Part shown: positions 4,088 to 18,946 of the stretch, one piece after another
Layout: every line of letters begins with the position of its first letter
Position numbering within the stretch: position 1 is the first letter of the stretch
DNA from: a virus
Virus record (IMG/VR): IMGVR_UViG_3300035661_000365
Location: 1 to 21,018 of that record
Direction: 5' to 3' (one strand)
DNA length: 21,018 nucleotides
Notes under the pieces: model-generated
Told to the model about the DNA's origin: nothing
Seen by the model: only the letters and a program-made list of their open reading frames with translations
Database searches by the model: none
Made by a program: the position numbers and the translations under genes

Positions 4088-4432
4088 TTAACGATCCAAA
4101 TGGTCAACTGATAAATCAATGCTTGCCCAATCAATATCAGTCATATCTAGTTTATCAGATACCGATACATTTTTTACACCATAGAAGAAGTCTTCTAGTT
4201 TAGAATATGCAGTTTGTTTAGAGTTGACACTCGTGCTTTTAAATAGCGCTTCGATGCCGGTATATTTCTTTGCTTTTACCAAACCTTTCAATTCATCAAG
4301 CATTTTAATATACGGTTCACGGTTTGGTAACATTTCGATAAAACGAGCTGCTGCTAGTGTAGCTGCATTCTTATAACCGCCAACCGCTTCGTTGATTGTT
4401 TTTTCTGTTAAAAATTCTGAGAATGATTTCAT
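4088..4432 (-). CDS. Putative internal head protein with capsid-targeting N-terminus (copy 1)
   Basis: This 114-residue protein begins MKSFSEFLTE, closely like the T4 internal-protein capsid-targeting sequence MKTYQEFIAE. Two possible prohead-protease sites of the (L/I)-x-Glu type follow: LTE at 8-10 and INE at 13-15. The remaining roughly 100 residues are helical and Lys-rich in the middle, with an acidic C-terminus (DMTDIDWASIDLSVD), and match no family I recognise. If processed as in T4, the mature protein would be packaged with DNA and injected. AAAAAGGAAATCC precedes the ATG and the promoter at 4466-4494 lies just upstream, so early synthesis is likely. The packaging role is inferred from the N-terminus only. 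Confidence 0.7.
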   Translation of the reverse strand: MKSFSEFLTEKTINEAVGGYKNAATLAAARFIEMLPNREPYIKMLDELKGLVKAKKYTGIEALFKSTSVNSKQTAYSKLEDFFYGVKNVSVSDKLDMTDIDWASIDLSVDHLDR

Positions 4433-4512: not shown

Positions 4513-5076
4513 TTAGCATTTAATTCTTGTATACTTTTTGACGACACCGGTTACGTCAATATCATCAAGGAGAAACACTGTACTGCTTACAAATTCTTCT
4601 TCCAATGTTTCCATAAAGTAATCTGACATTGTAACTGCCGTATCGGACTCATACCAGATGTCATAATGAGTTATATACACTTCATCAACATAACGCAATG
4701 AGCTTTCATATAACTCTTTGCCACCAATAATCCAATTATCGATTTTAAGTTTTGATAATTTGTTACATCGTGATTTACATGGTGTACATGGTTTCGCACA
4801 ACCCATATTCATTAACGTCAATTCTTTGAGGGCCCATCTAATACTGTTAGCATACATCTGAGCTGGGCCATGGTCCAGCGTTGAACTGATAACAACATTA
4901 TATCTATTTGGTAAACTCATATTTGGTAAACTCAAATGAGTATTACGTCCCATGATAACATTATGTTTGGTGGTCATTTCCCTAAAAAATTGCATGTCAA
5001 TCATTGACTTTACTACAAGTTCATTCTTATCACCAATAACATTATTTTCAGTCATTGCTAGAATCATCTTATTCAT
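4513..5076 (-). CDS. frd: Dihydrofolate reductase with a four-cysteine insertion
   Basis: This enzyme reduces dihydrofolate to tetrahydrofolate, regenerating the cofactor used by the thymidylate-synthase-fold enzyme. Its 187 residues carry the DHFR marks in order: ILAMTENNVIGDKN (substrate loop), Asp27 in SMIDMQFF at the catalytic acid position, VIMGRNTHLSL and NRYNVVIS for NADPH binding, and NWIIGGKELYESSL with the conserved Gly-Gly. Unusual is a segment at about 93-104 with Cys93, Cys97, Cys100 and Cys104 followed by a basic stretch, which could bind a metal ion. T4 Frd has no such cluster that I recall. GAGGT seven bases upstream supports the start at 5076, which overlaps the gene before it by eight bases. 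Confidence 0.9.
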   Translation of the reverse strand: MNKMILAMTENNVIGDKNELVVKSMIDMQFFREMTTKHNVIMGRNTHLSLPNMSLPNRYNVVISSTLDHGPAQMYANSIRWALKELTLMNMGCAKPCTPCKSRCNKLSKLKIDNWIIGGKELYESSLRYVDEVYITHYDIWYESDTAVTMSDYFMETLEEEFVSSTVFLLDDIDVTGVVKKYTRIKC

Positions 5077-7208: not shown

Positions 7209-7325
7209 TTACTTTTTTGTATTATTTTCGAACATTTTGATAAAAAGTAATCGTAGTTCATCTACAAGTGCTAATGCTTTACGTTGTAATTCATCAATAG
7301 TCATTTCTTTCAAGTCTTTATTCAT
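7209..7325 (-). CDS. 38-residue protein coupled to the dCMP enzyme
   Basis: The ATG at 7325 overlaps the TGA of the upstream enzyme gene (ATGA), and the frame ends TAA at 7209-7211, just before the next promoter. The product starts MNKDLKEMTIDELQRKALAL and continues as one charged amphipathic helix ending in Lys. No function is known to me. Stop-start overlap and helix-like composition make a real gene likely; it may be a small accessory or regulatory peptide made with the enzyme. Confidence 0.6.
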   Translation of the reverse strand: MNKDLKEMTIDELQRKALALVDELRLLFIKMFENNTKK

Positions 7326-8179
7326 ACTGCCATCTCCACCCCACTAATTAATGCAGGACCTTTAACCCAATTGTTTATTTGAACATCCGCCCATTCTAAG
7401 CTAAGAATATCTTCTACAGAATTTAGTTCTTTATTAATTGTTACAGTAGGGCAGTTCATCTCACTCACATCTTGTTCAACAATCATTTCTGCTAATTCAA
7501 TCTGATTTGCATAGATATGAGTATTTGTAAAGGTCATTAAAATGTCACCAGTTTTATAACCTAGTGTATCGGCAAATGTTTTTAACCAAAAATATGAAAA
7601 TGCCAAGTCATACGGTACACCAAATACAATATCAGCGCTTCGTCCATGTACATATAAATGTAGTGTTCCATCTTGATACATGAATTCATATAAATGGAAG
7701 CATGGTTCCAATGCCATTTCACTCAGCTCATTTGGATTCCAGATTGACACAACATGGCGACGAGATGTTGGATTGTTTTTGAGTGAATTGAAAACATTTT
7801 GTACTTGGTCTGTTTTACCTCCAAAGTTTCTATATTGATAACCATAGGCTTTGCCAATATTATTTTCGGGTACATTGGTTAGACCGCGGGAATCTAAAAA
7901 TTCACGAGTAGAATTACCATCCCAAATATGGATATTCTTTTTCTGTAGTACAGTAGCATCAGTGCTACCAGACATCATCCATCTGAATTCTTCAAATGCG
8001 ATACGAGGAGCTAATGTTCGGCATTGTAATAATGGTGCATACTTATTATTGGTAGAGAATTTAATCATTTTACCGAATAATTGTTTGGACATACCAATAG
8101 ATGTTCTATCAGGTTGGAATGTACCAAAATCCAGAATCTCTTTTACTAAATTCTGATAAGCAAAGTCTACTTTAATCAT
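7322..8179 (-). CDS. Thymidylate-synthase-fold enzyme with dCMP signature (dCMP hydroxymethylase or methylase candidate)
   Basis: This 285-residue enzyme has the thymidylate synthase fold and catalytic set: Arg25, Glu63/Glu64, Tyr112, catalytic Cys160 (MALEPC), Arg140-Arg141, Arg180-Ser181, Asp183 and the His221/Tyr223 pair (THIY). The residue that tells uracil from cytosine, Asn177 in E. coli, is Asp191 here (FGVPYDLAF against LGLPFNIAS). T4 dCMP hydroxymethylase also has Asp at this place, and changing the Asn to Asp in thymidylate synthase moves activity to dCMP. The His after the catalytic Cys is Phe161. I therefore infer a dCMP hydroxymethylase or methylase using methylene-tetrahydrofolate, working with gp56, DHFR and the dNMP kinase. 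A segment at 88-107 (TREFLDSRGL) resembles an insertion of eukaryotic thymidylate synthases. AAAAGGAAC supports the start. Confidence 0.85.
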   Translation of the reverse strand: MIKVDFAYQNLVKEILDFGTFQPDRTSIGMSKQLFGKMIKFSTNNKYAPLLQCRTLAPRIAFEEFRWMMSGSTDATVLQKKNIHIWDGNSTREFLDSRGLTNVPENNIGKAYGYQYRNFGGKTDQVQNVFNSLKNNPTSRRHVVSIWNPNELSEMALEPCFHLYEFMYQDGTLHLYVHGRSADIVFGVPYDLAFSYFWLKTFADTLGYKTGDILMTFTNTHIYANQIELAEMIVEQDVSEMNCPTVTINKELNSVEDILSLEWADVQINNWVKGPALISGVEMAV

Positions 8180-12224: not shown

Positions 12225-12785
12225 TTAGAAGTCCTGAGTGACTGATAATATTACACCAGTACTACGTTCGTCCAAGTTCTTTTCAAATCCAGCAACTGTT
12301 ACAGATGTTGCTTTAGTCAATTTATAGCTTGCACCAACTGAATATGTCCATGATTCAAACTTAATTTGGCTATCAAAGCTATTACGATAGCGAGCGCCAG
12401 CACCGAATGTTAATTTATCATTAACAGTATATGCAACCTTTGGCTCAATTGAACCGTATGTATAGCTATCAGACTTAGCAGACAACAAACCAAGACTAGC
12501 AGTTGCACCAACAGCAACCGGGCTTGCACCAATAGGGAACATACGAGTAACCTGAGGTTCTACATACGTATACATCTCACCAGTTTTTACATCACGACTT
12601 GATAATAAACGAAGACCTACTTGGTATTGGACTACATCTAAGAATGGGCGAACAAATACAGCAGCAGAATCAGCAGTATTTAGATGATCTTCATAAGCAA
12701 CGCCAAGTTCAACACCAGCAGCATAAGCATTAGATGCAGCAATTAATCCAGTAGCAATAGCAATAGTAGACATTGTTTTTTTCAT
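12225..12785 (-). CDS. Outer-membrane beta-barrel protein with signal peptide
   Basis: The 186-residue protein starts with a clear Sec signal peptide (MKKTMSTIAIATGLIAAS, cut predicted after AYA at 22). The mature part is about 164 residues of alternating Gly, aromatic and hydrophobic residues in amphipathic strands (VGLRLLSSRD, TYVEPQVTRM, VAYTVNDKLTFGAGARYR, YSVGASYKLT) and ends with Phe (GVILSVTQDF), the C-terminal signature recognised by the BAM complex. The length suits an eight-stranded barrel. No family is recognised. A phage-made barrel could block receptors against superinfecting phage, as known for some prophage outer-membrane proteins, or alter the envelope at late times. AAAAGGAAC precedes the ATG and it follows the ClpP-like gene by 29 bases. 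Confidence 0.82.
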   Translation of the reverse strand: MKKTMSTIAIATGLIAASNAYAAGVELGVAYEDHLNTADSAAVFVRPFLDVVQYQVGLRLLSSRDVKTGEMYTYVEPQVTRMFPIGASPVAVGATASLGLLSAKSDSYTYGSIEPKVAYTVNDKLTFGAGARYRNSFDSQIKFESWTYSVGASYKLTKATSVTVAGFEKNLDERSTGVILSVTQDF

Positions 12786-12814: not shown

Positions 12815-13594
12815 TTAATCATCAACATCAGATTCGGCATCATCAATAGATTTTATAGATTCGACAGAGTGTATGTAACTGTCTAAATTATTTATATACT
12901 CATCGGTGTACTCAATTGTTACAAATTGATAGACTGAGTTTAGTTCATCGTACATTATAACTTTTTCAACACCTTCATCATCAATATGGTACAATGTAGT
13001 AGTATCCATAATACGGCGTTTAGGTGATTCAAAATCAGATAAGAAGATTGCGAATCCACGATTAACCATATCAGCCGCATCAATCCATACTTCAGAAATA
13101 CGTGAATGGTATTGTTCATCTGGTGTCATGAACTTATCAACCGTGTTGGTATATAAGCGACCATAGATTACTTGTGATACATTTGCTAGTGCAAGATGTT
13201 CTGCAGTTTTACCATAATTACCAAAAGATTCTCGATGAATCATTAATATAGTATATTCATCAATGACTCGAATATCACCGGCAGACCATAAAATAAATCC
13301 AGCAGATGCAACTTCACCAATACCAATTGTTACAACATGACTATACAACTTAAAGATTCTTAAAAGTTCTAAACATGTCATTAAATCTCCACCAGGTGTA
13401 TTAATTGTTACATGTAATACACTATATTTGTTTGCTAGGTACTGAAGTTTTATTAGTTCATCTGAGTATTCAATAACAGGATCAATTTGTCCACGTATAA
13501 AGAGTTCAACTCTATGATATTCAGATACTTCTGATACGACGATGGATTTATTAATAGGAAACATTTGAGTTGGTTGATTGTCATTATCTGACAT
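12815..13594 (-). CDS. ClpP-like serine protease
   Basis: This 259-residue protein has the ClpP/crotonase fold marks: INTPGGD (66-70; Gly68-Gly69 for the oxyanion hole), GEVASAGFILWSAGD with Ser98 as nucleophile, and LMIHRESFGNYG with His120. At the third catalytic position, Asp in ClpP, the best alignment gives Glu168 (SEVWIDAADMVNRGF), so the acid may be replaced. An acidic tail (SIDDAESDVDD) follows an extra C-terminal region of about 60 residues. ClpP-like proteases occur in many phages as head-maturation enzymes or with unknown targets; the T4 prohead protease is a different fold, so I leave the target open. AAAGGAAC supports the start. It is followed closely by the barrel gene. Confidence 0.85.
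   Translation of the reverse strand: MSDNDNQPTQMFPINKSIVVSEVSEYHRVELFIRGQIDPVIEYSDELIKLQYLANKYSVLHVTINTPGGDLMTCLELLRIFKLYSHVVTIGIGEVASAGFILWSAGDIRVIDEYTILMIHRESFGNYGKTAEHLALANVSQVIYGRLYTNTVDKFMTPDEQYHSRISEVWIDAADMVNRGFAIFLSDFESPKRRIMDTTTLYHIDDEGVEKVIMYDELNSVYQFVTIEYTDEYINNLDSYIHSVESIKSIDDAESDVDD
12889..12896 (-). promoter_or_regulatory. Possible T4-type late -10 box inside the ClpP-like gene
   Basis: TATAAATA occurs on the minus strand about 104 bases before the barrel ATG. It lies in coding sequence of an AT-rich genome, so it may be chance. Confidence 0.3.
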
Positions 13595-13826: not shown

Positions 13827-14096
13827 TTACCACATTGGACCTTTAATTTGTGTTAATTTTCCATCTTTCAGTACCAGTGTATCATGTGCACGTAATACTA
13901 AATTTTTATGGACTGATTGGTCAGTGAATGTGATCTTTAACAATGGTGCAGCCGAAGCAACTACAACATCATCTGATCCAAATTCATCATAAACCATTGC
14001 TCTGATTTTTTCTAGTGCTAGTTTAGTTGTATCCCAAACAATAGAAGTTTGATCTGATGAATGTTCTGATAATTCAAATTGTCTAAATGTTTTCAT
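13827..14096 (-). CDS. Putative internal head protein with capsid-targeting N-terminus (copy 2)
   Basis: This 89-residue protein begins MKTFRQFELSE, with LSE at 9-11 fitting the (L/I)-x-Glu prohead-protease rule; the mature part would start HSSDQTSIVW. The body has one helix (TTKLALEKIRAMVYDEF) followed by beta-like segments (VVVASAAPLLKITF, LVLRAHDTLVLKDGKL) and no recognised domain. It shares only the N-terminus with the other four members. ATAGGAAC precedes the ATG. No sigma70 box is visible nearby; the gene follows a hairpin-rich spacer and could be read from the promoter at 15405-15433 or the late boxes near the tRNAs. Confidence 0.65.
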   Translation of the reverse strand: MKTFRQFELSEHSSDQTSIVWDTTKLALEKIRAMVYDEFGSDDVVVASAAPLLKITFTDQSVHKNLVLRAHDTLVLKDGKLTQIKGPMW

Positions 14097-14238: not shown

Positions 14239-15144
14239 TTATCGTCCGTAAACTCGGCCACCAACAATTTGTGTTTTTATGGCAACTAATGCAGCACTAG
14301 TTTTGTTGATTTCTGATTGAGATGGAGCACTATCAGATGAACTCTTAGTAATCTCAAGGAAAGTATCTTCTAACGCTGAGAATAATTTTCTAAACTGTTC
14401 AAAATCTTTAGATAGTTTTGCATCGTCTGACACTGAATTAGTATTTTCCGTAGAAGGTGATGGTACAGTAGTTTTACCCGTAGCTTTAGTATTCAATATT
14501 TCAACTATGATATTAAATAATTTTTTTACCATCTTTTTTGGCATATCTGCTGGTATAACATCTGATTCTCTATATTCAACACCCGAATGATGAATTTTGT
14601 GGTCGTAAGTCGTTTGTAATTTTGGATCAGTAAGAGTCTTGAAGAATTTAGGATTAGACATATCAAAAAGTTTATAATGCTCTATCTTTTTATCATTTGA
14701 GTCATCATCCAAGAACACTATACCATATTCCTCATTATTCCACTTTTGAATAATTCTTATAGTTCCATAACTTCTATCAAAATATGTAAAAATTCTTCTT
14801 AATTCGCTTTTATCGATTAATTTAATATTGCCATAATATACATCTAATAACCCAGTATTTTCCCTCTTAATCTTCACATCGTCTATACCACGATTGTAGA
14901 TAAATACATCATTCTTATTATCATTTGAATTTGATGTAGGGTAATCATTATTAGTCATACCATCAAATGTTAGCAACTTTGGATCAAACTTTCTTTGAGT
15001 GATACGTTCACACAATTCAGCAACCTTTGGGTCGTTTCGTAACATCATTAATAATGATTTAACGCTCCCATCATTTGTGACAGTTGCTTCTGTAAGATTA
15101 GCTGCACTATTGGCTGAAGATAAGAATTCTTTAAATGTTTTCAT
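14239..15144 (-). CDS. Putative internal head protein with capsid-targeting N-terminus (copy 3)
   Basis: This 301-residue protein opens MKTFKEFLSSANSAANLTEA; LTE at 17-19 followed by Ala is an exact (L/I)-x-Glu site, so a 19-residue propeptide is predicted. The body is mixed alpha/beta with many charged residues, a Ser/Thr/Asn-rich linker at about 218-240 (TTVPSPSTENTNSVS), and a helical end. No family or catalytic motif is recognised. AGGA eight bases before the ATG supports the start. A T4-type late box, TATAAATA, lies 37 bases upstream, which suits a head protein made late. The tRNA genes lie immediately before it, so tRNA transcripts could also continue into it. Confidence 0.7.
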   Translation of the reverse strand: MKTFKEFLSSANSAANLTEATVTNDGSVKSLLMMLRNDPKVAELCERITQRKFDPKLLTFDGMTNNDYPTSNSNDNKNDVFIYNRGIDDVKIKRENTGLLDVYYGNIKLIDKSELRRIFTYFDRSYGTIRIIQKWNNEEYGIVFLDDDSNDKKIEHYKLFDMSNPKFFKTLTDPKLQTTYDHKIHHSGVEYRESDVIPADMPKKMVKKLFNIIVEILNTKATGKTTVPSPSTENTNSVSDDAKLSKDFEQFRKLFSALEDTFLEITKSSSDSAPSQSEINKTSAALVAIKTQIVGGRVYGR

Positions 15145-15180: not shown

Positions 15181-15188
15181 TATTTATA
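15181..15188 (-). promoter_or_regulatory. T4-type late promoter before copy 3
   Basis: TATAAATA on the minus strand, 37 bases upstream of the ATG at 15144 and directly next to the 3' end of the tRNA gene. T4 late promoters consist only of this -10 octamer, read by gp55-polymerase with gp33 and the clamp. Confidence 0.65.
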
Positions 15189-15263
15189 TGGTGGGACTGC
15201 AGGGAATCGAACCCCGATTAAACGATTATGAGTCGCCTATTCTAACCATTGAATTACAGTCCC
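15189..15263 (-). tRNA. tRNA with CAT anticodon (Met, or Ile2 if modified)
   Basis: On the minus strand GGGACTG pairs exactly with CAGTCCC, followed by discriminator A and an encoded CCA. The D stem is ATTC/GAAT, the anticodon stem GGCGA/TCGTT has two G-U pairs, the loop CTCATAA places CAT at 34-36, and the T arm is CGGGG TTCGATT CCCTG. The variable loop is four bases by my folding. G1-C72 argues against an initiator. Elongator Met is most likely; an Ile tRNA with lysidine cannot be excluded from sequence. Confidence 0.9.
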
Positions 15264-15269
15264 GTTATT

Positions 15270-15347
15270 TGGTGCCCACAGCACGACTCGAACGTGCAAC
15301 CGACGGTGTAGAAGACCGTAGCTCTCTTCCAATTGAGCTATGTGGGC
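15270..15347 (-). tRNA. tRNA-Arg (TCT)
   Basis: On the minus strand GCCCACA pairs exactly with TGTGGGC, followed by A and encoded CCA. The D stem is GCTC/GAGC, the anticodon stem ACGGT/ACCGT, the loop CTTCTAC with TCT at 34-36, and the T arm GCACG TTCGAGT CGTGC. It reads AGA, a codon favoured by AT-rich phages and rarer in many Gram-negative hosts. Six bases separate it from the second tRNA, so they are made as one precursor. Confidence 0.93.
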
Positions 15348-15370
15348 GATTGTATTATACAACATCAACT

Positions 15371-15378
15371 TATTTATA
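15371..15378 (-). promoter_or_regulatory. T4-type late promoter before the tRNA pair
   Basis: TATAAATA on the minus strand, 23 bases before the 5' end of tRNA-Arg. With the sigma70 promoter just upstream it would allow tRNA expression both early and late. Confidence 0.55.
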
Positions 15379-15404
15379 ACTATATTGTTTGAGTTGTTAG
15401 ATAT

Positions 15405-15451: not shown

Positions 15452-16732
15452 TCACATAATACCATTAAATTTTACAGAAAGGTTATAAAAATGACCTAAC
15501 TTATGTTCAACACCAGACTTATTAGTGCGTACGGAGAACATCATCTTAAGCTTTTCTGACCCGGCAATGAGTTCAATGAAAAAATCCTGTTTTGATGTTG
15601 GTGATTTAGTTGCAGAAATGGCTTTAACCTTTGGCAAAAATACTGATATATCATCATCATCAGTTACAATTTCATACGTGCTATTATATGCTTTAACCAC
15701 CACCAATGGAACATCACTTTCACCTAATATTGCAGTTCTAATCCAATTGATTGTTTTTTTATAATCTGATTTAAACATATCGCACAAATATGTCCTAACA
15801 ATATCTAAACCGGTATCATATAATTTATCATACATTGTGGGATTATTAGTTTCCAGATTATCTAAGATTTTAAGTGTATTACGTCTATCAGATGAATCAT
15901 ACGTTGTAGCACCACCAATATTAGGAATTTTTGAATAAACACCAGTATACATCAATAATCTTAATTTATTATTACTAATCCCAAATGATGTTAAAATTGG
16001 ATTAACATAGGTATTAAGTTTAGGTTCTAATGATGTTTCTGTACCAGCCTTAAGTGATACTCCAACAATTCCACCAGTTTGGTATACAATAAAGATATCA
16101 CCTTTATGACTTGATGGAATTCCAAATGGTTTTTTTCTATATGCCCATATTACCTGTTTAATTTTAGATTTTTTATCTTCATCATATAGATACTTTAATA
16201 CACCCATGGCATTATTCATTTTTTCTTTGAATTTAGATGATTGACTAAATTTAGAAATAAAATCAATAGCAGCTTTTTTATCATTATCTACATATACATC
16301 TAAAGCATCGTGATTGACTGTCATCAAAAAAGAATAAAAGTCATCTACTGATTTTGGATGATATTTCATCGTAAATGCAATCACTGGTGATAGTTCAGTG
16401 ATTGTTGAATTTAGCGTTGTTTCACTCATACCGCCACGAATAGGTTTGAACATAATAATAGTCTTGATAGTATTATTACCTTGGATGATAAGCACTGGTA
16501 TAGATCCAGATAAAGAACTTATCTTTTCTTCAGTGAAAGTAATTCCATTATTGGATAACTCTTTTTTGATTTGAGTAGATGTACCAGGACGATCATTGGA
16601 TTTTACAACAAGAACTAATCTTTTTGAATTCGATTGCTTGTCAGAAACTTCATAAGAATATTTTGCCAATATTTTAGCAATATCAGACTTGATGATTTCC
16701 TTTTCAAAAATAGTATGTAAAAACGTCTTCAT
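15452..16732 (-). CDS. Putative capsid-targeted protein with nuclease-like domain (copy 4)
   Basis: This 426-residue protein begins MKTFLHTIFEK; IFE at 8-10 fits the (L/I)-x-Glu prohead-protease rule, so a ten-residue propeptide is predicted. The central part has a PD-(D/E)XK-like pattern: an acidic helix near Glu113 (TITELSPVIAF), Asp212 in KGDIFIVYQTGG, and Ser226-Leu-Lys228 in IVGVSLKAG, followed by LNTYVNPIL. The remainder is Lys-rich and has no other motif I recognise. If the pattern is a true active site, this would be a nuclease packaged in the head and injected with the DNA, which could attack host DNA or plasmids. AGGA eight bases upstream supports the start. It follows PhoH by 37 bases. 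Both packaging and nuclease activity are inferences. Confidence 0.65.
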   Translation of the reverse strand: MKTFLHTIFEKEIIKSDIAKILAKYSYEVSDKQSNSKRLVLVVKSNDRPGTSTQIKKELSNNGITFTEEKISSLSGSIPVLIIQGNNTIKTIIMFKPIRGGMSETTLNSTITELSPVIAFTMKYHPKSVDDFYSFLMTVNHDALDVYVDNDKKAAIDFISKFSQSSKFKEKMNNAMGVLKYLYDEDKKSKIKQVIWAYRKKPFGIPSSHKGDIFIVYQTGGIVGVSLKAGTETSLEPKLNTYVNPILTSFGISNNKLRLLMYTGVYSKIPNIGGATTYDSSDRRNTLKILDNLETNNPTMYDKLYDTGLDIVRTYLCDMFKSDYKKTINWIRTAILGESDVPLVVVKAYNSTYEIVTDDDDISVFLPKVKAISATKSPTSKQDFFIELIAGSEKLKMMFSVRTNKSGVEHKLGHFYNLSVKFNGIM

Positions 16733-16769: not shown

Positions 16770-18131
16770 TTAACCACCTAAACGGATTACAGCTTCGTTA
16801 GCCAATTCACTACGTACGGTTTCTTTAAGGTTTACATAACTAAATTTAGACCAGTCAATAAATGCGTTAATTGTATGGGTAAAACCATTTGAGCTTGCAC
16901 TTAAAAATGCAGAATCAATTTGTGAAACGTTACCAAGCATAACAATCTTTGTGCCTTCACCAGCTCGGGTTAAAATAAGTTTCATTTGGGTATTTGTTAG
17001 GTTTTGAGTTTCATCAATAATAATATATGTATTCTTGATGCTACGACCACGTAAAAATGCTGGTGTTTCTATTTCAATACGTTCTAAAATCTGTTCAGGA
17101 ATTGGTGTTGGTTTAGAACCCTTTTCTCTTGCACCTGTTTCTTTTGTTAAAGATTTTAGATTATCAAATAGTGGACCCATGTAGCCTTCTATTTTCTCAA
17201 TCTTTGTTCCAGGTAAAAACCCAACTTCTTCTGAACCCGCAGCTGCACCAACTTCTTTAACGAACATGATTGATTCATAATCACGATTTGTAAATACAGA
17301 TTCTAATGCGGATGCAACAGCAACCAATGTTTTACCACAACCTGCAGCTCCTGAGATTGCCACTAATTGTTTTGATGTATCAGTCAATGCATTCAGTGCG
17401 ATGTTCTGTTCAACATTCTTTGCTCTAATATTCCATATAGTATTTTTACCATTGTAATAATTATTAAATGGTTTTAATTCACAATAATCATCATAGCAAT
17501 CCAGAACACAATATGCGACATCAGTATCATCTACAACAATAATCATATTGTCTCTTAGTGATGATTCTGGTTGAATTTTAATAGCATCTACATTTGAATG
17601 ATATGATTGGACTAAAATATCAATTGTTGATTGCGATAGATTTAGTTCACTTGTGTATCTAATACCATGACCAATAATAGATTTATCAGAGATGTCTACA
17701 TTATCTGCTCTATAGTCTTCTACTTCTATTAATAATGATTTTGCCTTTACCCGCATATTAATATCACGGGATACTAAAATGACTTCATTATGTGGATATA
17801 ATTTTTCTAATGCTAATGTTTCCTCAATGATAATATTATCATTTGATGGATTTACTGGAATACTTGCTTTTAATTCATGAGTTGTGAATGTTAAAATACC
17901 ACCATTTGTATTAATAGCATACTTGTTAAATGCAATTTCATTTTGCATTACATTTTCTAATTGACGGGTTGCTTCACGAGCCTGTCGAGCTAAATCAGTA
18001 TAACCTTTTTTATGATTATCCAATTCATCTAATACAATAAAAGGAATATGTATTGTATGTTCATTGAATTTTAGAATGGCAAGAGGATCAGATAGCAATA
18101 CGTTAGTATCGAGGACATAAATTTTAGACAT
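16770..18131 (-). CDS. phoH: PIN-PhoH family RNA-acting ATPase
   Basis: This 453-residue protein has an N-terminal PIN nuclease domain (about 1-140; Asp8 in YVLDTNVLL, Glu36 in VLDELDNHK, Asp123 in SRDINMR) joined to a PhoH ATPase (about 240-453) with Walker A GAAGCGKT (261-268), Walker B TYIIIDETQN (368-377), and the family GFLPGTKIEKIEGYMGP segment. The length matches bacterial PIN-PhoH proteins, some of which are RNA-cleaving helicases; phages often encode PhoH alone, and its phage role is unsettled. The ATG at 18131 has GGGA about 11 bases upstream. A strong terminator lies 100 bases upstream, so it starts a new transcript, though the promoter is not clear: TTAAATAC 40-47 bases before the ATG resembles a degenerate late box. 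Confidence 0.93.
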   Translation of the reverse strand: MSKIYVLDTNVLLSDPLAILKFNEHTIHIPFIVLDELDNHKKGYTDLARQAREATRQLENVMQNEIAFNKYAINTNGGILTFTTHELKASIPVNPSNDNIIIEETLALEKLYPHNEVILVSRDINMRVKAKSLLIEVEDYRADNVDISDKSIIGHGIRYTSELNLSQSTIDILVQSYHSNVDAIKIQPESSLRDNMIIVVDDTDVAYCVLDCYDDYCELKPFNNYYNGKNTIWNIRAKNVEQNIALNALTDTSKQLVAISGAAGCGKTLVAVASALESVFTNRDYESIMFVKEVGAAAGSEEVGFLPGTKIEKIEGYMGPLFDNLKSLTKETGAREKGSKPTPIPEQILERIEIETPAFLRGRSIKNTYIIIDETQNLTNTQMKLILTRAGEGTKIVMLGNVSQIDSAFLSASSNGFTHTINAFIDWSKFSYVNLKETVRSELANEAVIRLGG

Positions 18132-18523: not shown

Positions 18524-18946
18524 TTAATTAGCCATTAGCCCATCTAATGTAGTTTTATTTACATTACCTTTAATGGTGCCATCCATTAAATTCATTTTAA
18601 TCAAAAATTCCGCAATCGCATTACCTTTTTCAATTGTGTCTGATACAATAAGAGTACCCATACTATAATCAGCCCAGTGTCTCACATCTGAAAGGAATGA
18701 TTTTTTAGCAGGGCCAGGAATTACTTTACGTGTAAATTCACCGTCATCTGTAATATCTTCAAAATTTTCTGTTGGAAATACTGGACTAGAACCTTTAAGT
18801 GGTTTAGTATCCGTTGCACCAATAATAACTAATGATACACTAGGAAAATCTTTTGCTGATTTAATAGACTTAAATTCAGTTGTTGTGATTACATCAACTA
18901 GCGTTAATCTTTTTGATTCTCTTAAAAATGTAAGAAATGATTTCAT
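18524..18946 (-). CDS. Putative internal head protein with capsid-targeting N-terminus (copy 5)
   Basis: This 140-residue protein begins MKSFLTFLRES, with LRE at 8-10 as the predicted prohead-protease site. The body is mixed alpha/beta (LVDVITTTEF, VSLVIIGATD, TLIVSDTIEKGNAIAEFL) with no recognised domain, and it shares only the N-terminus with the other four members. AAAGGT eight bases before the ATG supports the start. The upstream 306 bases hold no clear gene; ATTAAATA about 36-43 bases before the ATG is one step from the TATAAATA late box. Confidence 0.68.
   Translation of the reverse strand: MKSFLTFLRESKRLTLVDVITTTEFKSIKSAKDFPSVSLVIIGATDTKPLKGSSPVFPTENFEDITDDGEFTRKVIPGPAKKSFLSDVRHWADYSMGTLIVSDTIEKGNAIAEFLIKMNLMDGTIKGNVNKTTLDGLMAN

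What the first reader, a model, noticed from the sequence alone, without database searches (positions are those of the whole stretch)
15452..16732. A possible head-packaged, injected nuclease
Seen: the member with IFE at 8-10 also has Glu113, Asp212 and Ser226-x-Lys228 with the spacing and hydrophobic strands of a PD-(D/E)XK active site. Known: this superfamily includes restriction enzymes, Holliday resolvases and many phage nucleases. Inference: a nuclease delivered with the genome could cut host DNA, plasmids or competing phage DNA before any phage gene is expressed, while modified cytosine might protect the phage itself.
Basis: inference. Interest (0 to 1): 0.78.

Follow-up and report, generated by a model that had tools for sequence, protein, structure and literature searches.

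The report
PD-(D/E)XK phage nuclease with head-targeting leader
An unnamed protein of a T4-like phage turns out to be a divergent member of the restriction-enzyme-type nuclease fold, and here and in one other lineage it begins with the short removable tag that T4 phages use to load proteins into the virus head, so it may be injected into the host together with the phage DNA.

Summary
In detail: ORF 15452-16732(-) has IFE at 8-10, Glu113, Asp212, Ser226 and Lys228. It belongs to PHROG 2496 (unknown function, no Pfam), with relatives at more than 500 sites in viral contigs and 81 cyanophage records. All four predicted catalytic residues are invariant in 116 of 116 distinct relatives spread down to about 30% identity. 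AlphaFold2 of residues 97-360 (pLDDT 89) gives helix(E113), strand, strand(D212), strand(S226-x-K228), helix, strand. Foldseek's first 22 PDB hits are all PD-(D/E)XK enzymes, though none is significant alone (best HinP1I, E=5e-3). So the nuclease reading is supported; activity is untested. Head packaging is plausible but weaker for this member: MKTFLHTIFE has F4, I8 and E10 of the T4 capsid-targeting sequence, but Thr instead of Phe at position 7. Independently, a marine clade of the same family carries better leaders, with an [LI]-x-E cleavage site just before the mature domain; cyanophage, freshwater and short members have none. In many relatives the next gene is a ligase-like DUF6267 protein, often with its own leader, followed by a cytidylyltransferase known from virions. 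Cutting of host DNA after injection is inference; DNA repair or end-processing is a serious rival.

The parts
15452..16732 (-). phrog_2496 protein, 426 aa: predicted PD-(D/E)XK nuclease with N-terminal leader
   Evidence: phrog_2496 E=3.8e-111; AF2 models; Foldseek
16703..16732 (-). leader MKTFLHTIFE (residues 1-10), T4 capsid-targeting-like, with predicted prohead-protease site I-F-E|K
   Evidence: rule from PMC9026906
16442..16657 (-). N-terminal domain (about residues 26-97, beta-alpha-beta-beta-beta), absent in the short subfamily
16370..16432 (-). first core helix, residues 101-121, with Glu113 (motif I) in G-G-x3-T-T-x-N-x3-T-E-L-x-P
16049..16099 (-). beta hairpin, residues 212-228: G-D212-I-F (motif II) and S226-L-K228 (motif III)
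15686..15706 (-). candidate fourth core strand, residues 343-349 (follows invariant P342; K347 nearly invariant)
14239..15144 (-). downstream gene, 301 aa, leader MKTFKEFLSSANSAANLTE|ATVT laid out like T4 IPI (MKTFKEFTSTTTPVSTITE|ATLT): second candidate head-packaged protein, function unknown
   Evidence: weak phrog_4363 internal virion protein match over residues 1-24
15189..15347 (-). tRNA-Met and tRNA-Arg between the two leader genes
16770..18131 (-). upstream gene, PIN-PhoH (PhoH2-like)
7322..8179 (-). thymidylate-synthase-family protein with the dCMP-type Asp: candidate source of modified cytosine

Best explanation
The protein is a metal-dependent PD-(D/E)XK phosphodiesterase of a previously unassigned family (phrog_2496). 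Glu113 and Asp212 would bind metal and Lys228 activate the water, with Ser226 in place of the usual acidic residue. In most lineages it is an ordinary intracellular enzyme of the phage DNA-metabolism cluster. In this phage and in a separate marine clade a T4-type capsid-targeting leader precedes the enzyme. The prohead protease would remove it after I/L-x-E, leaving the mature nuclease among the DNA in the head, to be ejected with the genome and act on DNA at the start of infection. Shown here: family, invariant site, fold class, leader with cleavage motif. Inferred: cleavage activity, packaging, ejection and target; unmodified non-phage DNA is my first guess for the target.
For: Invariance of E113, D212, S226 and K228 in 116/116. 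[quoted passage not shown] the D-to-K spacing of 16 compares with 15 in Hjc (D33, K48). Foldseek ranks 1-22 all PD-(D/E)XK: HinP1I, EcoO109I, AdnAB, Exo5, ACE1, AddAB, VRR_NUC, RecU, CinB. Leader: compared with T4 IPs taken from the T4 record. In relatives the leader length varies from 10 to about 36 residues, but the [LI]-x-E site stays directly before the mature domain, and the tree needs two separate leader changes. T4-GC190, which has the leader MKKFSAFLTEAE and lies one or two genes downstream in cyanophages, was found in purified virions of S-SM1 (PMC3037559). Precedents: EcoRI and staphylococcal nuclease were packaged and delivered by T4 with this tag (PMC9026906; PMC3012670).
Against: No single Foldseek hit passes E<1e-3 and TM-scores are low (0.27); no sequence profile links it to any known nuclease family. 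Motif III has Ser, not Asp/Glu. The leader of this member has Thr at position 7, one of the two residues that matter most for targeting in T4. Nearest relatives (L009 and others) have no leader. No virion proteomics is available for this phage or for any phrog_2496 member that I could find.
Confidence: 0.5

Rival explanations
1. PD-(D/E)XK nuclease of phage DNA replication, recombination or repair (for example a flap, nick or Holliday-junction enzyme) made during infection and never packaged; the leader-like start of this member is a relic or chance.
For: In many relatives the gene lies after uvsX-gp41-mazG or gp47-gp46. Short, freshwater and cyanophage members have no leader. Thr at position 7 weakens this leader. 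The next gene upstream here is PhoH.
Against: Four other window proteins have the same kind of start, the next gene downstream having an almost exact copy of the T4 IPI layout. The leader with a cleavage site is kept throughout one marine clade.
Confidence: 0.35
2. Packaged and injected, but acting on the phage's own incoming genome (end or nick processing, recombination-dependent start of replication) together with the ligase-like DUF6267 protein, not as a weapon.
For: DUF6267, with K-W-D-G-A-P, E-G-F-V and V-K-L-V-D-R motifs like nucleotidyl-transferring ligases, is the gene immediately downstream in 83 of 159 relatives with a downstream ORF, often with a leader of its own.
Against: No DUF6267 gene in this window. 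In short-subfamily loci the DUF6267 gene has a leader-like start while the nuclease has none, so the two need not travel together.
Confidence: 0.12
3. Not a nuclease: a nucleotidyltransferase-type fold, or a dead PD-(D/E)XK domain used as an inhibitor like the T4 internal proteins.
For: The whole-protein Foldseek search listed DNA polymerase beta, CCA enzyme and RsfS first (E=7e-3). T4 Ip1-3 are injected inhibitors of GmrSD (PMC12373910).
Against: Those hits vanish when the N-terminal domain is left out, so they most likely come from residues 26-97. The invariant E, D and K argue against a dead site.
Confidence: 0.03

Closest known systems
phrog_2496 / T4-GC_1358 (hypothetical protein of cyanomyoviruses)
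   Same: Full-length homologue, 33-40% identity, same invariant residues
   Different: Cyanophage members have no head-targeting leader and no assigned function
Restriction endonuclease HinP1I and other PD-(D/E)XK enzymes (EcoO109I, Exo5, AddAB, RecU)
   Same: Core fold and position of the catalytic residues by model and fold search
   Different: No detectable sequence similarity; Ser in motif III; three-helix insertion between the first helix and first strand; extra N- and C-terminal parts
T4 internal proteins IPI, IPII, IPIII with capsid-targeting sequence
   Same: MKT[F/Y] start and [LI]-x-E cleavage motif at residues 8-10 (IPII, IPIII)
   Different: Thr instead of Phe at position 7; 426 aa, against 95-193 aa for the T4 proteins; T4 IPs are inhibitors of type IV restriction enzymes, not nucleases (PMC12373910)
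Staphylococcal nuclease and EcoRI packaged in T4 by a CTS fusion (PMC9026906, PMC3012670)
   Same: Nuclease carried in a T4 head by this kind of leader
   Different: Engineered, not natural

Membership tests
[quoted passage not shown]
   Model: H101-121, E191-196, E213-217, E222-228, H243-249/H255-264, E343-349; order of strands in the sheet could not be read from the output
PD-(D/E)XK nuclease superfamily | motif I acidic residue in the first core helix | tested here: met
   E113, 116/116
PD-(D/E)XK nuclease superfamily | motif II Asp at the second strand | tested here: met
   D212, 116/116; preceded by Gly, not Pro
PD-(D/E)XK nuclease superfamily | motif III (D/E)-x-K on the third strand | tested here: inconclusive
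   Lys228 116/116, but Ser226 replaces D/E; variants of the motif are documented in general (PMC1913061)
PD-(D/E)XK nuclease superfamily | structural similarity to solved members | tested here: met
   Foldseek ranks 1-22 all members; best E=5.4e-3, none below 1e-3; sequence profiles find nothing
PD-(D/E)XK nuclease superfamily | metal-dependent phosphodiester cleavage | not testable with these tools
   needs an assay
T4-type head-targeted internal protein | aromatic residues at 4 and 7 of the leader | tested here: not met
   F4 present, T7 instead of F (rule from PMC9026906)
T4-type head-targeted internal protein | [LI]-x-E prohead protease site | tested here: met
   I8-F9-E10, the only such site in residues 1-60
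T4-type head-targeted internal protein | presence in the virion in cleaved form | not testable with these tools
   needs virion proteomics
T4-type head-targeted internal protein | gp21-like prohead protease in the same phage | not tested
   the window is a 21-kb fragment; the ClpP-like protein at 12815-13594 is only a weak head-protease match
phrog_2496 | profile match over the full length | tested here: met
   E=3.8e-111, residues 18-425 on 14-420 of 422

The most novel reading that the evidence does not exclude
Some T4-like phages naturally load a PD-(D/E)XK nuclease into their heads with a swappable, cleavable leader and inject it, probably together with a ligase-like enzyme (DUF6267) and a cytidylyltransferase: an injected DNA-processing kit rather than an injected inhibitor.
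Probability: 0.35. Interest if true: 0.8.

Novelty: new variant of a known kind. Interest (0 to 1): 0.58.

Why it matters
Known T4 internal proteins with a worked-out role inhibit host restriction enzymes. A naturally packaged nuclease would be a different kind of injected protein: an enzyme that can act on DNA before any phage gene is read. It would also give a function to a large unassigned family found at more than 500 places in IMG/VR and 81 cyanophage records, and raise the question of how a phage keeps such an enzyme quiet next to its own packed DNA.

Tried and rejected
Sequence searches for a named family (Pfam, NCBIfam, PADLOC, PDB profile search) found nothing meaningful; CatAgl_D1 (E=0.01) and a GH43 chain (E=0.003) are weak chance-level matches with no support in other members. 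Nucleotidyltransferase reading from the first fold search: rejected because it disappears with the N-terminal domain removed. Direct search of viral contigs with the single protein found no relative; the family alignment found 526. No relative in bacterial or archaeal genome contigs, so it looks restricted to phages. A wrong start codon as cause of the leader: rejected, ATG 16732 has an AGGA and no better in-frame start follows.

Full report
The protein is read from 16732 to 15452 on the minus strand, 426 aa, with IFE at 8-10, E113, D212 and S226-L-K228. The start codon has an AGGA seven bases upstream. The window is a 21,018-base virus record of T4-like type: UvsX (about 43% identical to the T4-type protein), T4 RNase H, DsbA, a late-transcription coactivator and a helicase loader.

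Family. The protein matches PHROG 2496, unknown function, over its whole length (E=3.8e-111), and no Pfam, NCBIfam or PADLOC family. tblastn finds 81 phage records, nearly all Synechococcus myoviruses, at 33-40% identity, where it is T4-GC_1358. An alignment search of IMG/VR confirms 526 sites, and none in bacterial and archaeal genome contigs. There are two subfamilies. The long one has about 95 extra N-terminal residues. The short one (about 365 aa) begins directly at the motif GGxxTTxNxTITELFP, which equals residue 100 onward here. So the conserved core is residues 100-426.

Active site. In 116 distinct sequences E113, D212, S226 and K228 are invariant, along with a small set of other residues. 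The AF2 model of the whole protein (pLDDT 86, pTM 0.65) puts E113 in helix 101-121, D212 at the start of strand 213-217 and S226/K228 at the end of strand 222-228. In a hairpin turning at 218-221, residues 212 and 228 face each other, as D and K do in PD-(D/E)XK enzymes. The candidate second helix and fourth strand are 243-264 and 343-349. [quoted passage not shown] The D-to-K spacing is 16, against 15 in Hjc. A three-helix insertion lies between the first helix and first strand. Motif III has Ser in place of Asp/Glu.

Fold search. With the whole protein, PDB hits were weak nucleotidyltransferase and VOC-type matches, probably from the N-terminal beta-alpha-beta-beta-beta domain. I therefore modelled residues 97-360 alone with 39 sequences (pLDDT 89). 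The PDB search then gave PD-(D/E)XK enzymes at ranks 1 to 22: HinP1I (E=5.4e-3 and 1.6e-2), EcoO109I, AdnAB, Exo5, ACE1, AddAB, VRR_NUC, RecU and CinB, before the first unrelated protein. No single hit is significant (none below 1e-3; TM 0.27), but the agreement is not random. The membership of these enzymes in the superfamily is my own knowledge.

Leader. T4 internal proteins IPII and IPIII start MKTYQEFIAE|A, and IPI starts MKTFKEFTSTTTPVSTITE|A (sequences read from the T4 record; cut sites by the rule). In T4, residues 4 and 7 matter most for targeting, 8 and 10 for cutting after L/I-x-E (PMC9026906). The window protein has F4, T7, I8 and E10: three of four. Four other window proteins have such starts, against 0.06 expected for all five. 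The next gene downstream (14239-15144) has MKTFKEFLSSANSAANLTE|ATVT, laid out like IPI. In relatives, 15 of 46 distinct long members match a strict T4 pattern. In a marine clade the leader length varies from 10 to about 36 residues, but an [LI]-x-E stands directly before the mature domain; freshwater and cyanophage long members lack the MKxF start and a site in that position. A tree of the core alone puts the window member next to the leaderless freshwater clade and needs two separate changes for the leader. That the leader marks virion proteins in marine T4-like phages is supported by T4-GC190, which starts MKKFSAFLTEAE in related cyanophages and was found in S-SM1 virions by mass spectrometry (PMC3037559).

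Context. In 83 of 159 loci the next gene downstream is a DUF6267 protein (E about 1e-100) with motifs KWDGAPA, EGFVA and VKLVDR that resemble nucleotidyl-transferring ligases (my reading; not tested by structure), and often with a leader. The T4-GC190 cytidylyltransferase follows within one to four genes in many. Upstream lie uvsX, gp41 and mazG, or gp47 and gp46. So the family sits at the border between DNA metabolism and packaged proteins.

Mechanism. Most likely the protein is a working PD-(D/E)XK nuclease (my estimate 0.85 for the fold with an intact site). That this member is packaged and injected I put at about 0.55, and that its main target is non-phage DNA at 0.3. Support for the modified-cytosine idea: the thymidylate-synthase-like protein 7322-8179 has Asp (GVPYDLAF) where T5 ThyA has Asn (LPFNIAS) and T4 dCMP hydroxymethylase has Asp (RNDYAW). 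Engineered precedents show that a nuclease can be carried in T4 heads (PMC9026906; PMC3012670).

Limits. The window is a fragment, so the prohead protease, major capsid protein and any DUF6267 gene of this phage could not be checked. Supplementary proteomics tables could not be opened.

Noticed in passing
window 7322-8179 (-): Thymidylate-synthase-family protein with Asp at the dUMP/dCMP switch, as in T4 gp42; likely a dCMP hydroxymethylase, so the phage may have modified cytosine.
   Followed up: partly
window 14239-15144 (-): 301-aa orphan with a leader laid out like T4 IPI (MKTFKEFLSSANSAANLTE|ATVT); no meaningful match in phage records. Strong candidate injected protein.
   Followed up: partly
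window 4088-4432, 13827-14096, 18524-18946 (-): Three further small proteins with MK[TS]F leaders; 4088-4432 weakly matches an internal head protein family over the leader.
   Followed up: partly
L064, L057, L141, L162, L084, L002, L094, L148 (gene next to the nuclease): DUF6267 (unknown function) has motifs of ligase-type nucleotidyltransferases (KxDGxP, EGFV, VKLVDR) and often a head-targeting leader; PHROG 455 joins it to the virion cytidylyltransferase.
   Followed up: partly
window 12225-12785 (-): Small protein with a signal-peptide-like start and weak outer-membrane beta-barrel matches, unusual in a phage.
   Followed up: no
window 12815-13594 (-): ClpP-like protease with weak match to head maturation proteases, away from capsid genes.
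   Followed up: no
window 15189-15347 (-): tRNA-Met and tRNA-Arg genes between the two leader genes; ORF 15188-15379(+) is antisense to them and spurious.
   Followed up: yes
L064, just upstream of the nuclease gene at 4923: A 101-aa ORF repeating the start of the nuclease, leader included, lies just upstream of the full nuclease gene, as if duplicated or broken.
   Followed up: no
L008 5756-6852 (metaG-MbCM1): The short-subfamily nuclease is split over two annotated ORFs in this record, probably a frameshift or assembly error.
   Followed up: no
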